From: Mangrovimonas spongiae
Lineage (GTDB): Bacteria; Bacteroidota; Bacteroidia; Flavobacteriales; Flavobacteriaceae
DNA length: 64,000 nucleotides
Assembly (NCBI RefSeq): GCF_003944795.1
Contig: NZ_RWBG01000001.1
Span: 496,001 to 560,000, forward strand
Direction: 5' to 3'
How positions within the stretch are numbered: the stretch's first letter is position 1; every line of letters starts with the position of its first letter. Below the pieces are notes generated by a model. That model saw only the letters and a list, made by a program, of their open reading frames with translations, searched no databases and had not been told where the DNA came from. Shown here piece after piece: positions 13,177 through 22,689 of this stretch. Both the position numbers and the translations under genes were made by a program.

Positions 13177-13536
13177 TTATTTGTTTAAATATGTTATAAA
13201 ACCACTTATAAGTTTTGAAATTTCAATGATTTCAGAACTTAATTGGTCGAATTCTTTTTGAGTTAGATAGTTTAAATCTAATGCTAAATACAATTGAGAT
13301 CTAACTTCGCCTGCCGATGCTTTTGCGACAAATAAAAAGTGGATAAATTCTTTATCGGTGTTACGTTCAAAACCTTCAGCAATATTTGACGATATTGAAA
13401 CCGAAGCTCTTCTTATTTGTCTAATTAAATCGAAATCACGTTCAAAGTTTTTATTAGTAATAGTATAAACACTTTTATTAAATAACCTGGCTTTTTGCCA
13501 AGCAATTATATCTTCAAAAGCATTTATTTTTTTCAT
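13177..13536 (-). CDS. Four-helix-bundle protein (S23/23S rRNA intervening-sequence family)
   Basis: The 119-residue all-helical protein matches the S23/IVP family: an N-terminal FEDIIAWQKAR, RQIRRASVSISSNIAEGFER in the second helix, and FLFVAKASAGEVRSQLYLA in the third. Founding members are encoded inside intervening sequences of 23S rRNA genes in Leptospira and Coxiella; many free-standing copies exist in Bacteroidota with unknown role. Here it sits between sufC and sufD, framed by 39-base inverted repeats 3 bases upstream and 35 bases downstream of the gene. The insert lies exactly between the sufC stop and sufD start, so suf reading frames are intact. Confidence 0.93.
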   Translation of the reverse strand: MKKINAFEDIIAWQKARLFNKSVYTITNKNFERDFDLIRQIRRASVSISSNIAEGFERNTDKEFIHFLFVAKASAGEVRSQLYLALDLNYLTQKEFDQLSSEIIEISKLISGFITYLNK

Positions 13537-16556: not shown

Positions 16557-16564
16557 CAAATATA
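16557..16564 (-). promoter_or_regulatory. -7 box (TATATTTG) of the suf operon
   Basis: TATATTTG on the minus strand lies 29 bases upstream of the first suf gene. No obvious IscR-type or other operator palindrome was seen around it. Confidence 0.55.
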
Positions 16565-16629: not shown

Positions 16630-17712
16630 CTATTGGTTTGAGAAGTTTGGGTTGTTGATAAAGGATGGATCTGAGAGTGTGAGTAAAAAAGCTTTTAAAT
16701 CGGCTTTATCTTGATTTGAAAGTTGTACGCCGCCTTGATCTACTTTTTTCATTAAAGGATCAATGGTAGGGGAGTCTTGCAAACCTTCGCTGTAGTGGTT
16801 TATAACCTCATCTAATGTGGAGAAACGCCCGTCGTGCATGTAGGGTGCTGTGTAGGCTAGGTTTCGTAATGATGGCGATTTAAATTTGCCGTTATCGGCT
16901 GGATCGCCTGTAATTTGTCCTAAGCCGTTATCTGAAAAAGTGGTATCTAGTCCATTATTATGAAAGGCATTGTCTGTCCATAATGGATTATTAGGGTTTC
17001 CGTGACAATGAAAGCAATCGCCACGATCTTCATCCATAAAAATATTTAGACCATTTTGTTCCTGCGTTGTTAACGTCGCTTGACCTAGTAAATATTGGTC
17101 GAATTTAGAATTAGCAGAAATTAAGGTTCTTTCAAATTGCGCAATGGCTTTGGTTGTTAATTCTTTGGTGATATTTTGGTTACCAAAAGCAGCTTTAAAA
17201 AGGTCTGGATATTCTTCATGGTTGTTTAATCTAGTAACCACTTCGCTCCAAGTATTTGCCATTTCGGTAGGATCGGTTACAGGTTGTAGGGCTTGATGTT
17301 CTAACCTAAAAGCTCTGCCATCCCAAAAAAAGTTTTCGTCGTAATTCCAGGCAAGGTTGAATAGTGGCATAGAATTTCTTATGCCTAAATCGCCATTTAC
17401 ACCAGTACTAAACGTATTACTATCTGTAAATGCATTTTGAGGTAAGTGGCAACTAGCACATGCTTGAGTAAAATCTACAGATAGAATAGGGTCGAAAAAT
17501 AATTTTTTTCCTAAAGCTACGCCTTCAACTGTTTGTGGGTTATCTGTGGGGATTATTGGGGCTATGATATTGTCTTCAAAAACCTGAGGAATGTCTAACG
17601 GCGACGGTGTTGGGGTGTTTTGCGTTGGTACATAATCATTATCGGAACTGCTACTTGAGCAGGAACTTAATAGAAATATGATTATAATATGAATATACCA
17701 GCGGTTTTTCAT
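16630..17712 (-). CDS. Dihaem cytochrome c peroxidase family protein (MbnH-like)
   Basis: The 360-residue lipoprotein (LLSSC, Cys18) carries two c-type haem sites, CASCH at 85-89 and CFHCH at 233-237, the FFWDGRA segment at 128-134 and the distal-ligand region YMHDGRFSTL from 291. This is the MauG/CCP superfamily. It lies seven bases downstream of an MbnP gene; in methanobactin systems the dihaem enzyme MbnH oxidises a tryptophan of MbnP to kynurenine to make a copper site. An MbnH-like role is therefore inferred here, although classical peroxidase activity is not excluded. It is the last gene of a five-gene operon. Confidence 0.85.
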   Translation of the reverse strand: MKNRWYIHIIIIFLLSSCSSSSSDNDYVPTQNTPTPSPLDIPQVFEDNIIAPIIPTDNPQTVEGVALGKKLFFDPILSVDFTQACASCHLPQNAFTDSNTFSTGVNGDLGIRNSMPLFNLAWNYDENFFWDGRAFRLEHQALQPVTDPTEMANTWSEVVTRLNNHEEYPDLFKAAFGNQNITKELTTKAIAQFERTLISANSKFDQYLLGQATLTTQEQNGLNIFMDEDRGDCFHCHGNPNNPLWTDNAFHNNGLDTTFSDNGLGQITGDPADNGKFKSPSLRNLAYTAPYMHDGRFSTLDEVINHYSEGLQDSPTIDPLMKKVDQGGVQLSNQDKADLKAFLLTLSDPSFINNPNFSNQ

Positions 17713-17719
17713 TACTTTT

Positions 17720-18496
17720 TTATTGTGTAATTTCTCCTAATGTGAATGCGGAAGCGATGTTTTCTTGCATCATTTTTTGAGCCTCGTAATTAGGCATTAA
17801 AGATGTGTTGTAAGTATTTAAATCCCATAAGTTAGGGTTTTTAAATAGTTCGGCAAGATTAAATTGAATTTCAATTGTTGTGGTTTCAGAAATAGGTATT
17901 TCTGTCGGAAATTCAAAAGCAACAAAGTTTTGTTCAAAATTGTCTTCGCTTACCATTGCCATACCATTATGATAATTAAAAGGCATTGGCGTTGTAGTAT
18001 TAACGTTGTATTGCCCGTCAAATTGTAGGAAATGATAACCGCCACCTAACATTTCTGGCCAATTCCAAGATGCCGAATTTAAATCGGTATAGGCACCATC
18101 AATATTATCTGCTTCGTTAAATCCGTAAACAAATTTTAAAGTGTAATTTCCTGGTGTAACAGCACTTGTGGGAATAAAATTATATGTTTCAGCATCAGAT
18201 AAATCGATAAGCTGATAGCCTTGTAAAGGTGTTGTGTTGCCGTTTTCGTCTAATAGCTCAAAATGAGACAGCAAATATCTAAGTCGTGTAATAGTTAGTA
18301 CTTCTCCATTAGCATTGGTGTATTGCGTGTTTTCAATATCGGAAGGAGAAATTGCTGTGTCATCCCAATTTTGCGTAAAGGTAAATGTGGGAGTAACATT
18401 AATGTTGTTGCTGCCTAGTTTATCGTCATTATCTTCAGTACAAGAGAAAGTAAGCATTCCTAAAATGAGGATTAAAGCTATTTTTTTCATTTTCAA
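17720..18496 (-). CDS. MbnP family copper-binding lipoprotein
   Basis: The 258-residue product is an SPII lipoprotein (LTFSC, Cys19). The body follows the MbnP pattern: FTFTQNWD, LTITRLRYLLSHFEL, QLIDLSDAETYNF and, most diagnostic, the segment SWNWPEMLGGGYHFLQFDG with Trp144, Trp146 and His155. In MbnP a tryptophan in this region is converted to kynurenine by MbnH and takes part in copper binding. The partner MbnH-like gene follows after seven bases. One base separates the start from the stop of the propeller lipoprotein gene, so coupled expression is likely. Confidence 0.87.
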   Translation of the reverse strand: MKMKKIALILILGMLTFSCTEDNDDKLGSNNINVTPTFTFTQNWDDTAISPSDIENTQYTNANGEVLTITRLRYLLSHFELLDENGNTTPLQGYQLIDLSDAETYNFIPTSAVTPGNYTLKFVYGFNEADNIDGAYTDLNSASWNWPEMLGGGYHFLQFDGQYNVNTTTPMPFNYHNGMAMVSEDNFEQNFVAFEFPTEIPISETTTIEIQFNLAELFKNPNLWDLNTYNTSLMPNYEAQKMMQENIASAFTLGEITQ

Positions 18497-18497
18497 G

Positions 18498-19844
18498 TTA
18501 TTTTAAAACTGTTATTAAAAGGTCGGTAAACCCTTTGTTTTCAATGATATCAAAATCTAAACTGTTAGATTCGCCAACAGTTATAATATTACCGTTATTA
18601 ATTTGAACGGCATTGTAAAAAAAGTCTATTTGTGAGCCACCAACAGTTTTTTGCCATAATAAGTTGCCTTTGTTGTTTACTTCAAAAACCCAAGCATCGT
18701 TTTGCCCGTTGTTATTTGTTAGATTACCATCTATACTTCTAGAGCTACCAGATATGACAAAGTTATTGTTTTGAGTTTTAGAAATAGAGCGTCCAACATC
18801 GAAACCGCTTCCACCAAACGACTTTTGCCATAATAAATCGCCTTCAGGTGTTATTTTTATAAGCCATAAATCTGCCAAGCCATAGTTTGTACTGACATCT
18901 TCATTGTCACTTCTAGTATCTCCAACAATTAAGTAATTACCGTCGTTTGATTGGGTAATGGCACGTGCTTCGTCAATTTCGGTACCACCAAAGTTTTTTT
19001 CCCAAACAATGTCTCCTGTGCTAGAGGTTTTAACGATCCAAAAATCGTAAGTCCCTATATTATTGGATATGTCTACATCGTCGCTATCCGATGAGCCTAC
19101 TATTATAAAACCGCCATCATTTGTTTCGGTTACGCCATAAGGTGTGTCGGTGAAAAATCCGCCATAATAACGACTCCATTCTAAGTTTCCAGAAGCATCA
19201 AGTTTTAATGCCCAATAATCACCGCCAGCATGTCTGGCATTTGTTCTAGAATTACCTTCGCCGTTAGAAGCAGTAACATCTAACACGCCAGAAATAAGAA
19301 AGCCGTTATCCGATGTTGGAATAACAGAATATCCAGTATCTATTCCGGCATAACCAAAAGACTGTTGCCATAATAAATTCCCGTTAGGAGATAGTTTTGC
19401 TAGCCAATAATCTTTTAGTCCATGGTTATTGGTGACATCTTGATCGTTACTATCACTAAACCCTAAAACGGCTAGAGATCCATCTGGGGTTTCAATAATT
19501 GAATTTCCTCTGTCATTTCCAGTACCGCCAAAGGTTTTACTCCAAAGTAAAGTGTTTTCGCTATTAAATTTTAATACCCAAAAATCAAAACTTTCATTGT
19601 TTTTGTCTGAAATGTCGCCATCCATACTTTGTGTGTAACCTAGAATAGCATAACCGCCATCTTGCGTATTTGTAATAGATGTTGCGGCATCGTTTAAACT
19701 TCCACCAAATGTGTTTATGCTAACAATGTCTCTAGTGACAATGTTTAGTGGATTGGAGTCGTCACCTTTAGAGCAATTGTACATACTAAAAGTGGCGCAG
19801 AAAAGTAATATTATTAGTGTTGTATGTTTTGTTTTTTTAAACAT
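18498..19844 (-). CDS. Seven-repeat beta-propeller-like lipoprotein
   Basis: The 448-residue product has a lipoprotein leader (SMYNCSKG) and then seven copies of a 50-60-residue unit beginning near residue 45. Each starts with FGG(S/T)xxD, continues with T-DGGY-I-G, and closes with D-W-(V/L)K and GNLLWxKS. The third copy has an extra 10-residue insertion. Seven repeats suggest a closed seven-bladed propeller on the cell surface or in the periplasm. The repeat resembles SBBP-type repeats, but I cannot name the family. It lies in the MbnP operon, with gaps of three and one bases to its neighbours. Confidence 0.85.
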   Translation of the reverse strand: MFKKTKHTTLIILLFCATFSMYNCSKGDDSNPLNIVTRDIVSINTFGGSLNDAATSITNTQDGGYAILGYTQSMDGDISDKNNESFDFWVLKFNSENTLLWSKTFGGTGNDRGNSIIETPDGSLAVLGFSDSNDQDVTNNHGLKDYWLAKLSPNGNLLWQQSFGYAGIDTGYSVIPTSDNGFLISGVLDVTASNGEGNSRTNARHAGGDYWALKLDASGNLEWSRYYGGFFTDTPYGVTETNDGGFIIVGSSDSDDVDISNNIGTYDFWIVKTSSTGDIVWEKNFGGTEIDEARAITQSNDGNYLIVGDTRSDNEDVSTNYGLADLWLIKITPEGDLLWQKSFGGSGFDVGRSISKTQNNNFVISGSSRSIDGNLTNNNGQNDAWVFEVNNKGNLLWQKTVGGSQIDFFYNAVQINNGNIITVGESNSLDFDIIENKGFTDLLITVLK

Positions 19845-19847
19845 ATT

Positions 19848-21197
19848 TTAATTCTGACTTCTAATTATAAACAAGCCTCTATCAATATCACTTACAATAA
19901 TGTTACCGCTAGAAAAATAAGGGTAAACACTCCAAGCGCCTTGAAAATTAGCCGTATTACTTTCTGGGTAAGTATCGAAATATCCAGATTCGGTCATGGA
20001 ACCTGAAGCAAGGTTAGATACATCAATAAATCGAACACCAGCACTATAATTTGCTAGGAAAAAGTTATTGCCTTTTACATAGCCATTATGATCTATAGCA
20101 GGTGTTGGGCCTGAATAATCTAAATGAAAAGATGGGTTGTCTAAATCTGACACATCAAAAACCAAAGTTCTTGTATTGTTGCCGTAATATTGTTCATCTA
20201 GTTCGTCGCCTAAAATAAAGTATTCCATATTTTCGGTAAACCATCCTTGGTGTACATAGCCAATATTATTGTAGGTTATGGTTGAAATGATTGTAGGGTT
20301 GCTTTTATCGCTAACATTGGCAATAACAATTTCATCTTCATTACTTCCTATTAAAATCTCTTCTCCTAGATAATCATTATCTGGACCATTGTAGGTGATA
20401 ACTTGTGCATCGTGAGAATAGTCATGTAGCCCACCTTCGCTAATTGGTGATAGTGGGGTTTGAATGTTAATAAAAAGCGGTCCGCCGCCATAGGTGCCAC
20501 TTCTTGAAGTGCCAACAATGTAGGCATAACCAGAGTTTTCGTTGATTACAATGTTGTGCGCACTACCAAAATCGGTAAAATGAGTATCGGCTGTAAAGTC
20601 TTGGGGTTGTGTTATGTTTCTTAGTCTTGTAAGGTCGAAAACTTGCATACCATGCCCAGTGGCTTCACTTACAATAAAAGCGTGATTATTATACACTTTA
20701 ACATCACGCCAAATATTGCCATTATTTCCTGGATTGGCACTAGCGAGTTTTCCTATAAGTTGTGGTTGTGTTGGGTTGGAAATATCTACAAAAGCTGTTC
20801 CTTGAGTAGAACATACTAACGCATATTCTTTTCCTGTTACGGGGTCTGTCCATCCCCAACAATCATTGCCTTCGGCATTAGGTTCGGCTAGTTCATCTAA
20901 AGACATGTAACCAATAAGATCGTAGCCTTCGCAAGGGTAAATGTCTGCCATTCCATCAATACACTCTGCAAGTGGCTGCGGTGTATTGCCTTCGCATGCA
21001 TCGCCAATACCATTTTCGTTAGAGTCGGCTTGATTTGCATTGGCTACTTGTGGGCAATTATCTTCACTATCTGGAACGCCATCGTTATCTGTGTCGATTA
21101 CTGCAATTTCAGCCACAGGTTCGTTGTCACAAGATAACATAACACTAAAACTAAGTGTTATTAATAGTGTTTTTATAATACTTTTTTTAATAATCAT
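19848..21197 (-). CDS. Choice-of-anchor B family lipoprotein with a calcium-type repeat
   Basis: The 449-residue protein has an SPII leader (MLSCDNE). Next comes a thrombospondin type-3-like Ca-binding segment, DTDNDGVPDSEDNCPQ with a second DSNENGIGDAC unit. The rest is a choice-of-anchor B beta-propeller built of LVIVD-type repeats: GKEYALVCSTQGTAFVDIS, NHAFIVSEATGHGMQVFDL and GNNFFLANYSAGVRFIDVS. It ends without a T9SS tail at IRSQN. It is clearly paralogous to the upstream gene, which uses a T9SS tail instead of a lipid anchor. Four bases separate the two genes. Confidence 0.9.
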   Translation of the reverse strand: MIIKKSIIKTLLITLSFSVMLSCDNEPVAEIAVIDTDNDGVPDSEDNCPQVANANQADSNENGIGDACEGNTPQPLAECIDGMADIYPCEGYDLIGYMSLDELAEPNAEGNDCWGWTDPVTGKEYALVCSTQGTAFVDISNPTQPQLIGKLASANPGNNGNIWRDVKVYNNHAFIVSEATGHGMQVFDLTRLRNITQPQDFTADTHFTDFGSAHNIVINENSGYAYIVGTSRSGTYGGGPLFINIQTPLSPISEGGLHDYSHDAQVITYNGPDNDYLGEEILIGSNEDEIVIANVSDKSNPTIISTITYNNIGYVHQGWFTENMEYFILGDELDEQYYGNNTRTLVFDVSDLDNPSFHLDYSGPTPAIDHNGYVKGNNFFLANYSAGVRFIDVSNLASGSMTESGYFDTYPESNTANFQGAWSVYPYFSSGNIIVSDIDRGLFIIRSQN

Positions 21198-21201
21198 AAG
21201 G

Positions 21202-22650
21202 TTATTTGATAATTAGTTTTTTTATGGTTGTATTATTTATTTTAACTAAATACAAACCTGTTGTAAGTTTTTTTGTAGGTAAAACGAAAGATTTAAGGTT
21301 GATATTGTTTGATTTAAAGACAACTTTTCCTAATGTGTTGTACACTTTAATAGATTGAATTATCCCTTCTTTAGAGCTAATTTTAGTTTGATTTATTGCT
21401 GGGTTAGGTAACAAAGTGATTGTTTCTTTAGTTTTAAAAGTACTAGTGTTTAATGTGCCACTTTTTCTAACAACAAATAACCCTCTTTCAATATCACTAA
21501 TGATAATATTTCCACTAGAAAAATAAGGGTAAACACTCCATGCACCATTAAACGCTGTACCATTACTTTCAGGATGCGTATCGAAATAACCAATTTCTTC
21601 CATAGCATCTGTTGCCGCCGATATGTTAGTAATATCTAAAACACGTAATCCAGCTCTGTAATTTGCTATAAAAAATTTATCACCCAAAACGTATCCATTA
21701 TGATCAATCGCAGGTGTAGAGCCGTAGTAGGTAGATGAAAGAATAGGGTTGTCTAAATCGTTAAAATCAAAAACTAGTGTTCTAGTGTTAAAGCCATATC
21801 CTTGTTCGTCTGTTTCATCACCTAATATAAAGTATCTTTGGTCATCTGTAAACCAACCTTGGTGTGTGTATCCAATTTGTGGGTAGGTGATTTCTGAAAG
21901 CTTTACAACGTTATTTTTGTCTGTGACATCAAGTATTAAAACTTCAGACTCATTGCTACCAATATAAATTTCTTTTCCTATGTGTTCGGTGTCTGGGCCG
22001 TTATATGTGACTACTTGTGCATCGTGGGAGTAACCATCATTGGCATAGCCGCCAGCATTAGTAGGGTTGGTCGGGTTGGAAATATCAATAAATGCAGGGC
22101 CGCCAGCATAAGGACCACTTCTACTTGTTCCAACAATATAGGCATATCCAGTATCTTCGTTGATAACAATATTGTGTGCGCTTCCAAACTCTGTATAATG
22201 TGCATCGGCAGTAAATGTTACAGGTGGAGAGGTTACATTTCTAAGTCTAGTTAAATCAAAAACTTGCATACCGTGGTTGCCAACAAGATCGGCTACTATA
22301 AAGGCATGATTATTATATACTTTTACATCGCGCCAATAACTCGTTCCTGCGGCAGTATCTAAACGGCCAAGGAAAATTGGATTTATAGGGCTTGAAATAT
22401 CTACAAAAGCTGTGCTGTTTGTCATGGCTATAATGGCGTATTCTTTTCCGTTTGTTGGGTCTGTCCATCCCCAAATATCACTACCTTCCGGGTTACCTTG
22501 TGTGTTTGCTAATACCGATACTGGTATGTTGGCAAGTAAATCGTAATCGTTACAGGGGTATGCTCCTGCAAAACCGTTATTGCAAGGTGTTTGCGAAAAA
22601 AGAAGGGTTGTTATAAAAAGAGCGTAGATTAAGGGTAAAGTTTTTTTCAC
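21202..22650 (-). CDS. Choice-of-anchor B family protein with T9SS sorting domain (GTG start)
   Basis: The 482-residue product has a cleavable signal peptide ending LLFSQ, a choice-of-anchor B propeller (HAFIVADLVGNHGMQVFDL, YGSTPAIDHNGYVLGDKF), and a C-terminal type A T9SS sorting domain from about residue 410, with LLPNPAINQTKIS, VYNTLGKVVFKS and the final LYLVKINNTTIKKLIIK. It should therefore be secreted or cell-surface attached through the type IX system. The start is GTG at 22650. A -7 box lies 31 bases upstream, making it the first gene of the five-gene operon that ends with MbnP and MbnH. Confidence 0.92.
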   Translation of the reverse strand: MKKTLPLIYALFITTLLFSQTPCNNGFAGAYPCNDYDLLANIPVSVLANTQGNPEGSDIWGWTDPTNGKEYAIIAMTNSTAFVDISSPINPIFLGRLDTAAGTSYWRDVKVYNNHAFIVADLVGNHGMQVFDLTRLRNVTSPPVTFTADAHYTEFGSAHNIVINEDTGYAYIVGTSRSGPYAGGPAFIDISNPTNPTNAGGYANDGYSHDAQVVTYNGPDTEHIGKEIYIGSNESEVLILDVTDKNNVVKLSEITYPQIGYTHQGWFTDDQRYFILGDETDEQGYGFNTRTLVFDFNDLDNPILSSTYYGSTPAIDHNGYVLGDKFFIANYRAGLRVLDITNISAATDAMEEIGYFDTHPESNGTAFNGAWSVYPYFSSGNIIISDIERGLFVVRKSGTLNTSTFKTKETITLLPNPAINQTKISSKEGIIQSIKVYNTLGKVVFKSNNINLKSFVLPTKKLTTGLYLVKINNTTIKKLIIK

Positions 22651-22681
22651 GTTTTTTTGTTAAAAAATTAAAAATGACAAA

Positions 22682-22689
22682 CAAAATTA
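22682..22689 (-). promoter_or_regulatory. -7 box (TAATTTTG) of the MbnP/MbnH operon
   Basis: TAATTTTG on the minus strand is 31 bases upstream of the GTG start at 22650, at the divergent boundary with thiL. Confidence 0.5.

What the first reader, a model, noticed from the sequence alone, without database searches (positions are those of the whole stretch)
16630..22689. MbnP/MbnH pair in a five-gene exported-protein operon with three propellers
MbnP (with Trp144/Trp146) and an MbnH-like dihaem protein follow two choice-of-anchor B proteins and a seven-repeat propeller, all spaced 1-7 bases apart from a single -7 box. In methanobactin systems MbnH converts an MbnP tryptophan to kynurenine to create a copper site. 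Here no methanobactin genes are seen, so this could be a separate copper-handling surface complex.
Basis: partly seen in the sequence, partly recalled or inferred. Interest (0 to 1): 0.75.

Follow-up and report, generated by a model that had tools for sequence, protein, structure and literature searches.

The report
Kynurenine-copper gene pair with surface propellers
A flavobacterium carries a known pair of genes, one for a copper-binding protein and one for the haem enzyme that probably alters it to hold copper, in one operon with propeller-shaped exported proteins, and related bacteria have placed such pairs beside the same propeller genes at least twice, which suggests that they work together.

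Summary
Five minus-strand genes (choice-of-anchor B propellers ancB1 and ancB2, a seven-repeat propeller 'P448', MbnP, MbnH) lie 1-7 nt apart behind one -7 box. MbnP passes its Pfam cut-off and its model matches the Methylosinus MbnP structure. MbnH has two CxxCH motifs and a Tyr where MauG has axial Tyr294. The genome has no MbnB-family match, but MbnPH pairs beyond methanobactin producers were reported in 2013.

New here: ancB-P448 sits in a thiL-sufA slot in Flavobacteriaceae. It precedes MbnP in 67 of 100 MbnP loci read in the family and 0 of 40 outside it. Two separate MbnH lineages sit behind it (AU p 1.6e-96), so recruitment happened at least twice. Yet 52 of 151 family genomes with P448 have no MbnP match: ancB-P448 also persists alone.

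The second is Val in 50 of 78. Four relatives have Phe at the first.

Best reading: a surface-lipoprotein version of the kynurenine-copper pair, functionally coupled to propellers that may bind metal. Kynurenine formation, copper binding, surface location and contact are inferred. New variant of a known kind.

The parts
22682..22689 (-). Bacteroidota-type -7 box TAATTTTG, its first base 39 nt upstream of the ancB1 start codon
   Evidence: the only TAnnTTTG found in the 200 nt before the operon; more frequent before the first ancB in relatives (31 of 74) than before inner genes (3-4 of 77)
21202..22650 (-). ancB1: choice-of-anchor B propeller (482 aa) with a type IX secretion C-terminal sorting domain; His159, 209, 263, 317 and Asp108, one per blade, conserved throughout the ancB examined
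   Evidence: TIGR04312 544 bits; PF18962; AF2 pLDDT 85
19848..21197 (-). ancB2: choice-of-anchor B propeller (449 aa) with an N-terminal lipobox-like LSC and a thrombospondin type 3 repeat; 62% identical to ancB1 over 376 columns
18498..19844 (-). P448: seven-repeat beta-propeller, putative lipoprotein (448 aa), no named family; similar to the propeller part of CylK
   Evidence: lipobox in 76 of 77 relatives
17720..18496 (-). MbnP: copper-protein family, putative lipoprotein (258 aa from TTG, 256 from ATG 18490); Trp144/Trp146 (142/144 from ATG), His155 and His176 (153/174), Met234 (232)
16630..17712 (-). MbnH-like dihaem c-type cytochrome, putative lipoprotein (360 aa), CxxCH at 85 and 233, Trp130, Tyr307 at the MauG Tyr294 position

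Best explanation
This is an MbnP-MbnH pair recruited to a gene pair that makes exported propellers (ancB and P448). Proposed course: the operon is read from one promoter; MbnP, MbnH, P448 and ancB2 are exported as outer-membrane lipoproteins, probably to the surface, and ancB1 leaves through the type IX system. MbnH, with its Tyr-ligated haem, oxidises the first Trp of the WxW motif of MbnP to kynurenine. Modified MbnP then holds Cu(I) with the conserved His174 and a second ligand (the type-specific invariant His153, or Met232). Copper-loaded MbnP serves the propellers, most likely by handing copper to, or taking it from, the ring of four invariant His residues at the mouth of ancB. Shown here: genes, families, conservation, order, slot, the two recruitments, candidate residues. 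Inferred: kynurenine formation, copper binding, surface location, contact with the propellers. The confidence covers a surface kynurenine-copper pair that is functionally coupled to ancB-P448; the hand-over to ancB alone is much less certain, about 0.2.
For: MbnP: PF20243; AF2 model (pLDDT 76) against 7l6g MbnP, Foldseek E 4e-7, VIA Z 14.9 over 208 residues with the next entry at 7.5. In the window's type the first Trp is Trp in 74 of 78, His153, His174 and Met232 are invariant in 78 of 78. MbnH: best PDB hit 6e1c (E 1e-55); Tyr307 aligns with chain index 294 of MauG, where the peroxidase 3o5c has Met; both haem motifs, Trp130 and Tyr307 in 78 of 78. Coupling: ancB-P448 next to MbnP in 67 of 100 family loci, 0 of 40 outside the family; thiL, sufA and sufB all present around 68 of 82 module loci; two MbnH lineages behind ancB-P448, their union rejected with AU p 1.6e-96; of the 5 loci with the second type of MbnP, 4 have thiL upstream and 3 also sufA downstream. 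Lipobox in 77 of 77 MbnP, 77 of 77 MbnH and 76 of 77 P448, Asp/Glu-rich at +4 to +6 in MbnP.
Against: 52 of 151 family genomes with P448 have no PF20243 match; in 20 of 20 such loci read, ancB-P448 stands without MbnP or MbnH. MbnPH without ancB-P448 is common (31 of 100 family loci, 40 of 40 outside). Four of 78 MbnP have Phe for the first Trp although their MbnH looks intact. The curated NCBIfam cut-offs are missed: TIGR04039 270 against 363, TIGR04052 16.5 against 140. The MbnP model is weak around the Trp (block pLDDT 59), and the sequence profile reaches 7l6g only at E 0.07. The ancB ring is invariant also where no MbnPH is present and outside the family, so it does not depend on MbnP. 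One of the 67 module loci (L145) and the orphan L100 show no MbnH next to MbnP.
Confidence: 0.5

Rival explanations
1. Passenger pair: MbnPH works in copper handling on its own and merely shares a promoter in a very stable chromosomal slot between thiL and sufA; the propellers do something unrelated.
For: ancB-P448 without MbnPH, mostly in the same slot (sufA in 19 of 20, thiL in 16 of 20 stretches), one clade of P448 (SH-aLRT 98, quick tree); MbnPH without these propellers in 31 of 100 family loci and 40 of 40 outside; the slot is stable.
Against: A second, distant MbnH lineage came to the same position; spacing of 40 nt or less in 73 of 77 for P448-MbnP and 73 of 77 for MbnP-MbnH; shared lipoprotein export.
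Confidence: 0.25
2. MbnH acts on another residue or on the propellers, or the MbnP of this type uses its two invariant histidines without a kynurenine; the Trp is a structural leftover.
For: Four of 78 MbnP lack the first Trp while keeping His153, His174, Met232 and an intact-looking MbnH; the second Trp is lost in 50 of 78; ancB has invariant Trp60, 62, 106, 266 and 371.
Against: The first Trp is kept in 74 of 78. The exceptions look like one event: the three of the four that were sampled in the MbnH tree (L078, L105, L115) form one starred clade, though L078 stands apart from the other three in the P448 tree.
Confidence: 0.15
3. MbnH here is an ordinary dihaem cytochrome c peroxidase that removes peroxide at the cell surface.
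For: CCP_MauG family; similarity to several bacterial peroxidases.
Against: Tyr at the position where the peroxidase 3o5c has Met, in 78 of 78; nearest solved structure is MbnH 6e1c; next to MbnP in all 78 loci of the window's type used.
Confidence: 0.06

Closest known systems
MbnP-MbnH of Methylosinus trichosporium OB3b (7l6g, 6e1c)
   Same: Protein families, fold of MbnP, WxW motif, conserved His in the motif aligned with VHVGSTG, dihaem enzyme, adjacent genes.
   Different: No MbnB in the genome; both proteins carry lipobox signals; extra invariant His153; second Trp dispensable; operon with propellers; curated NCBIfam cut-offs missed.
MopE/SACCP and CorA/CorB of methanotrophs
   Same: A surface protein with a Trp-derived kynurenine at copper, next to a dihaem peroxidase-like gene (PMC3912023, passages).
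   Different: In CorA the site is Kyn62-x-His64 plus His114; here Trp144-x-Trp146, no His two residues on. The 50 solved-structure rows shown for the MbnP model contain neither, which does not exclude them.
Methylamine dehydrogenase with MauG (architecture recalled)
   Same: A MauG-type dihaem enzyme that modifies Trp in a protein whose complex contains a seven-bladed propeller.
   Different: A methylamine dehydrogenase light chain was not sought; the resemblance found here is to MauG only.
XusB surface propeller lipoprotein of Bacteroides
   Same: Seven-bladed propeller as a surface lipoprotein in metal acquisition (PMC13142918, passages).
   Different: XusB is a DUF4374 protein that partners a TonB-dependent transporter; here TIGR04312 proteins and no transporter in the operon.
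Sb-PTE phosphotriesterase propeller (5hrm)
   Same: Top Foldseek match of ancB1 (E 4e-11) and the longest alignment among the rows shown in the second look (335 residues, Z 30.1).
   Different: 15% identity; Z tied with many WD40 propellers; metal ligands not compared.

Membership tests
MbnP (PF20243) | Pfam score above the gathering cut-off | tested here: met
   104.6 bits against 27
MbnP (PF20243) | MbnP fold | tested here: met
   AF2 model against 7l6g: Z 14.9, 208 residues, 3.4 A; Foldseek E 4e-7
MbnP (PF20243) | WxW motif with its first Trp, the kynurenine precursor (recalled from Manesis 2021, paper not held) | tested here: met
   Trp144-Asn-Trp146 in the window; the family motif aligned with GMAWNWQAG of 7l6g in a weak profile match, E 0.07; first Trp 74 of 78 in the type
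MbnP, NCBIfam TIGR04052 (equivalog) | score above the curated cut-off | tested here: not met
   16.5 against 140 bits: not filed as this equivalog
MbnP (PF20243) | Trp converted to kynurenine and Cu(I) bound | not testable with these tools
   needs mass spectrometry and metal analysis
MbnH, NCBIfam TIGR04039 | score above the curated cut-off | tested here: not met
   270.3 against 362.85 bits; called MbnH-like here
MbnH/MauG type of the CCP_MauG family | two CxxCH haem motifs | tested here: met
   CASCH 85, CFHCH 233; 78 of 78 in the type
MbnH/MauG type of the CCP_MauG family | Tyr in place of the axial Met of the peroxidases (MauG Tyr294; role and number recalled) | tested here: met
   Tyr307 aligned with chain index 294 of MauG 3rn1, Met in 3o5c; 78 of 78 in the type
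MbnH/MauG type of the CCP_MauG family | gene next to its Trp-bearing partner | tested here: met
   7 nt downstream of MbnP
Methanobactin operon | MbnB (PF05114) in the genome | tested here: not met
   no match in the genome held (99.95% complete)
MopE/CorA | Kyn-x-His copper ligands | tested here: not met
   Trp144-x-Trp146, no His at +2; ligands of CorA
choice-of-anchor B (TIGR04312) | score above the curated cut-off | tested here: met
   543.9 and 528.8 against 100 bits
Sb-PTE-like metallo-propeller | metal site in the propeller channel with matching ligands | tested here: inconclusive
   fold match only; profile match E 1.2; no coordinates available to me

The most novel reading that the evidence does not exclude
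The module makes a new kind of surface metalloenzyme with a protein-derived cofactor: MbnH builds kynurenine in MbnP as MauG builds TTQ in methylamine dehydrogenase, and MbnP-Kyn-Cu works as the small redox subunit of an ancB/P448 propeller enzyme whose ring of four invariant His residues binds a second metal. Different flavobacteria equipped the same propeller pair with such a subunit at least twice.
Probability: 0.1. Interest if true: 0.85.

Novelty: new variant of a known kind. Interest (0 to 1): 0.52.

Why it matters
Kynurenine-copper sites are rare protein metal sites, and what they do outside methanotrophs is open. Here the pair has a fixed set of partners in a widespread bacterial family and was joined to them at least twice, which makes the question testable: what do the choice-of-anchor B propellers, for which no function was found in the library searched, need copper or a MauG-type enzyme for? 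The natural variants (52 of 151 genomes with P448 but no MbnP match, 4 Phe variants, one orphan MbnP) supply ready comparisons.

Tried and rejected
Ordinary peroxidase: unlikely, because Tyr stands where the peroxidase has Met. Methanobactin locus: rejected. Five-gene obligate complex: rejected as stated, since ancB-P448 stands alone in 20 of 20 P448 loci read from genomes without an MbnP match. Trp146 as kynurenine site: unlikely, Val in 50 of 78. Chance neighbours: rejected. ancB as a member of the phosphotriesterase family: not claimed, Z values tie across WD40 propellers. MopE and CorA did not appear among the listed fold matches of MbnP, which does not exclude them. phmmer of the single MbnP against the PDB found nothing at E up to 1; a profile of 16 rows found 7l6g only at E 0.07. 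The sigma-70 and terminator scan was uninformative: 32 promoter-like sites against 26.2 expected; 9 terminator-like sites against 4.7, none of them between MbnH and sufA. The Pfam scan of four neighbours of the other MbnP type gave no family above cut-off. Literature: the phrase 'choice-of-anchor B' occurs in none of the 19 papers that hold any term, all 19 listed; searches listed no paper on MbnP or MbnH with these propellers or this slot, but the lists of 13, 74 and 84 were cut (20 of 206, 20 of 26, 10 of 34). The two key papers (PNAS 2021, JBC 2019) are not in the library, and their neighbourhood analyses may contain this arrangement. What I state about the first Trp of WxW and about His/Met ligands in Methylosinus MbnP is recalled from the PNAS abstract. 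PMC3621798, PMC3912023, PMC5080379, PMC9426467 and PMC13142918 were seen as passages only.

Rows and limits: of the places printed I fetched 100 (80 consecutive rows from E 1e-36 downward, leaving out the window itself, and 20 chosen by me from the top part); of those printed I fetched 40 regions outside the family, my choice. One search did not list all its matches. At least three rows are present twice (identical P448 of L041/L126, L042/L117, L036/L123), so 82 module loci and 78 MbnP are not all independent. Of the 52 genomes with P448 and no MbnP match I read 20, my choice. The MbnH tree used every third type A row; that used 37 rows picked by hand. The trees are quick ones without a mixture model. 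The group joined for the AU test was named after the first tree had been seen. The lipobox pattern and the type IX tail pattern are permissive patterns of my own. The family and phylum names rest on the named relatives; the genome itself is unnamed.
Full report
What is there. The minus strand holds five genes at 22650-16630 with gaps of 4, 3, 1 and 7 nt: ancB1, ancB2, P448, MbnP, MbnH. Both ancB are choice-of-anchor B proteins (TIGR04312, over 500 bits); ancB1 ends in a type IX sorting domain, and ancB2 begins with a lipobox-like LSC and a thrombospondin type 3 repeat. P448 has seven repeats and matches the propeller-bearing CylK. MbnP is PF20243 at 104.6 bits, MbnH is CCP_MauG. NCBIfam's stricter models rate both below their cut-offs (TIGR04052 16.5 against 140; TIGR04039 270 against 363), so this is a divergent branch. 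A single TAnnTTTG box begins 39 nt before ancB1; relatives have it before the first ancB in 31 of 74, against 3-4 of 77 before inner genes and 2 of 77 in a coding control. The finding is confirmed; co-transcription is likely but not shown.

MbnP. A model from 17 aligned sequences (pLDDT 76) matches the crystal structure of Methylosinus MbnP, 7l6g, with E 4e-7 and Z 14.9 over 208 residues, the next entry having Z 7.5. Among 78 MbnP of the window's type that stand with ancB-P448 (window, 62 loci of the family sample, 15 named genomes; at least three present twice) W142 is Trp in 74 and Phe in 4, W144 is Trp in 28 and Val in 50, and H153, H174 and M232 are invariant; in 71 MbnP of the usual type without the propellers W142 is Trp in 71, W144 in 70, H174 His in 70, and position 153 is not conserved as His. 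By recall of the PNAS 2021 abstract, Methylosinus MbnP forms kynurenine at the first Trp of WxW and binds Cu(I) with His and Met. The added invariant His153 could make a two-His site as in CorA (Kyn62, His64, His114; PMC3912023, passages), but the Kyn-x-His pattern of that protein is absent.

MbnH. The best solved relative is MbnH 6e1c (E 1e-55). Tyr307 falls on chain index 294 of MauG, whereas the peroxidase 3o5c has Met there. Haem motifs, Trp130 and Tyr307 are present in 78 of 78 of the type; in 70 MbnH of the usual type without propellers the Tyr is kept in 57. In four relatives (L078, L098, L105, L115) MbnP has Phe for the first Trp though MbnH looks intact; this speaks against a universal kynurenine role. 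The three of them sampled in the MbnH tree form one clade, which suggests a single change.

Setting. I read 100 MbnP places in the family (Flavobacteriaceae by its named relatives) and 40 outside it. ancB-P448 accompanies MbnP in 67 of 100 (62 with the window's type of MbnP, 5 with the usual type; MbnH follows in 66) and 0 of 40, plus 15 of 15 loci in named genomes such as Mangrovimonas, Formosa, Bizionia and Olleya. Of 82 module loci 68 have thiL, sufA and sufB around them: a fixed slot. In the family sample of 299 genomes P448 (E up to 1e-90) is in 151, MbnP in 139, both in 99, P448 alone in 52, MbnP alone in 40 (Fisher p 2e-11 without correction for kinship). In 20 of those 52 genomes I read the P448 locus: 20 of 20 have ancB next upstream and none has MbnP or MbnH; 19 of 20 have sufA downstream and 16 of 20 thiL in the stretch. 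On the P448 tree these 20 are one side of a branch (SH-aLRT 98), so one gain or loss of MbnPH suffices there. Of the 5 module loci with the usual type of MbnP, 4 have thiL upstream and 3 also sufA downstream. Their MbnH (4 rows; the fifth locus shows none) nests within the usual family MbnH, far from the window's type; holding the two groups together is rejected (AU p 1.6e-96, with the group named after a first tree). Hence at least two MbnPH lineages came to sit behind ancB-P448, by insertion or replacement. This is the strongest argument for a working link, and the stand-alone ancB-P448 loci are the strongest argument against an obligate complex.

Location. With permissive patterns of my own, a lipobox is found in 77 of 77 MbnP, 77 of 77 MbnH, 76 of 77 P448 and 60 of 123 ancB of the module relatives; 58 of 123 ancB have a type IX-like tail. 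After the Cys the residues +4 to +6 of MbnP are Asp or Glu in 87%, 47% and 78%, comparable to the export signals of surface lipoproteins in Capnocytophaga, Bacteroides and Flavobacterium (PMC5080379, passages). SprA of the type IX system is in the genome. Surface location is therefore likely but not shown.

ancB. The model of ancB1 (pLDDT 85) is a beta-propeller that aligns over its residues 22-401 with seven-bladed WD40 propellers; the best Foldseek hit is Sb-PTE 5hrm (E 4e-11), but in the second look many WD40 propellers tie at Z near 30. Residues D108, H159, H209, H263 and H317, spaced 50-54 apart at or next to the start of a strand, are present in 129-130 of 130 ancB of module loci (the window's two counted; one row has a gap at three of the five), 20 of 20 stand-alone and 14 of 14 outside the family. 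Such a ring suggests a metal or substrate site in the channel mouth. It belongs to the family and does not depend on MbnPH; ancB is also widespread in the phylum (60 of 148 genomes, 50 over the cut-off).

Reading. A kynurenine-copper pair of the MbnP/MbnH kind, probably placed on the surface and coupled to propellers that also exist without it. The pair itself is known and widespread: Kenney and Rosenzweig noted it beyond methanobactin producers in 2013 (PMC3621798, passages), and a 2022 paper lists MbnPH-like genes in copper operons (PMC9426467, passages). The propeller partnership and the twofold recruitment I did not find in the library (searches, some with cut lists), with the two key papers unread.

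Noticed in passing
16557-16564: sufA, the next gene downstream of MbnH and on the same strand, has its own TAnnTTTG box (TATATTTG, beginning 37 nt before its start), so the SUF operon need not be read through from MbnH.
   Followed up: partly
13177-13536: A 119-aa protein that resembles the four-helix-bundle 'S23/IVS' proteins (label recalled, no search made) is encoded between what look like sufC and sufD.
   Followed up: no
L078, L098, L105, L115 (MbnP): MbnP with Phe for the first Trp of the motif but with an intact-looking MbnH gene: natural tests of what MbnH does.
   Followed up: partly
L100 (thiL-sufA slot): Orphan MbnP of the window's type without ancB, P448 or MbnH in the stretch; it has lost the type-specific His153 and Met232 (Tyr, Thr) but keeps the first Trp.
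   Followed up: partly
L045:7126-7962: Second MbnP copy in tandem with the motif WYWP kept but His174 replaced by Asn.
   Followed up: no
Window's genome G000, contig C5, 40391-41269: A second TIGR04039-like dihaem stretch in the window's genome whose frame carries one TAG and one TAA.
   Followed up: no
L048-L146, loci without propellers: Usual MbnPH pairs of the family lie next to a small protein with a CNGKC-type motif, a Cys-rich outer-membrane-like protein, or a TonB-receptor-like protein with a lipoprotein (labels are mine); Pfam names none of the four examples tested.
   Followed up: partly
ancB1 residues 277-282: The motif GDE-x-DE of choice-of-anchor B proteins is conserved in nearly all members examined and may add to the site formed by the four His.
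   Followed up: no
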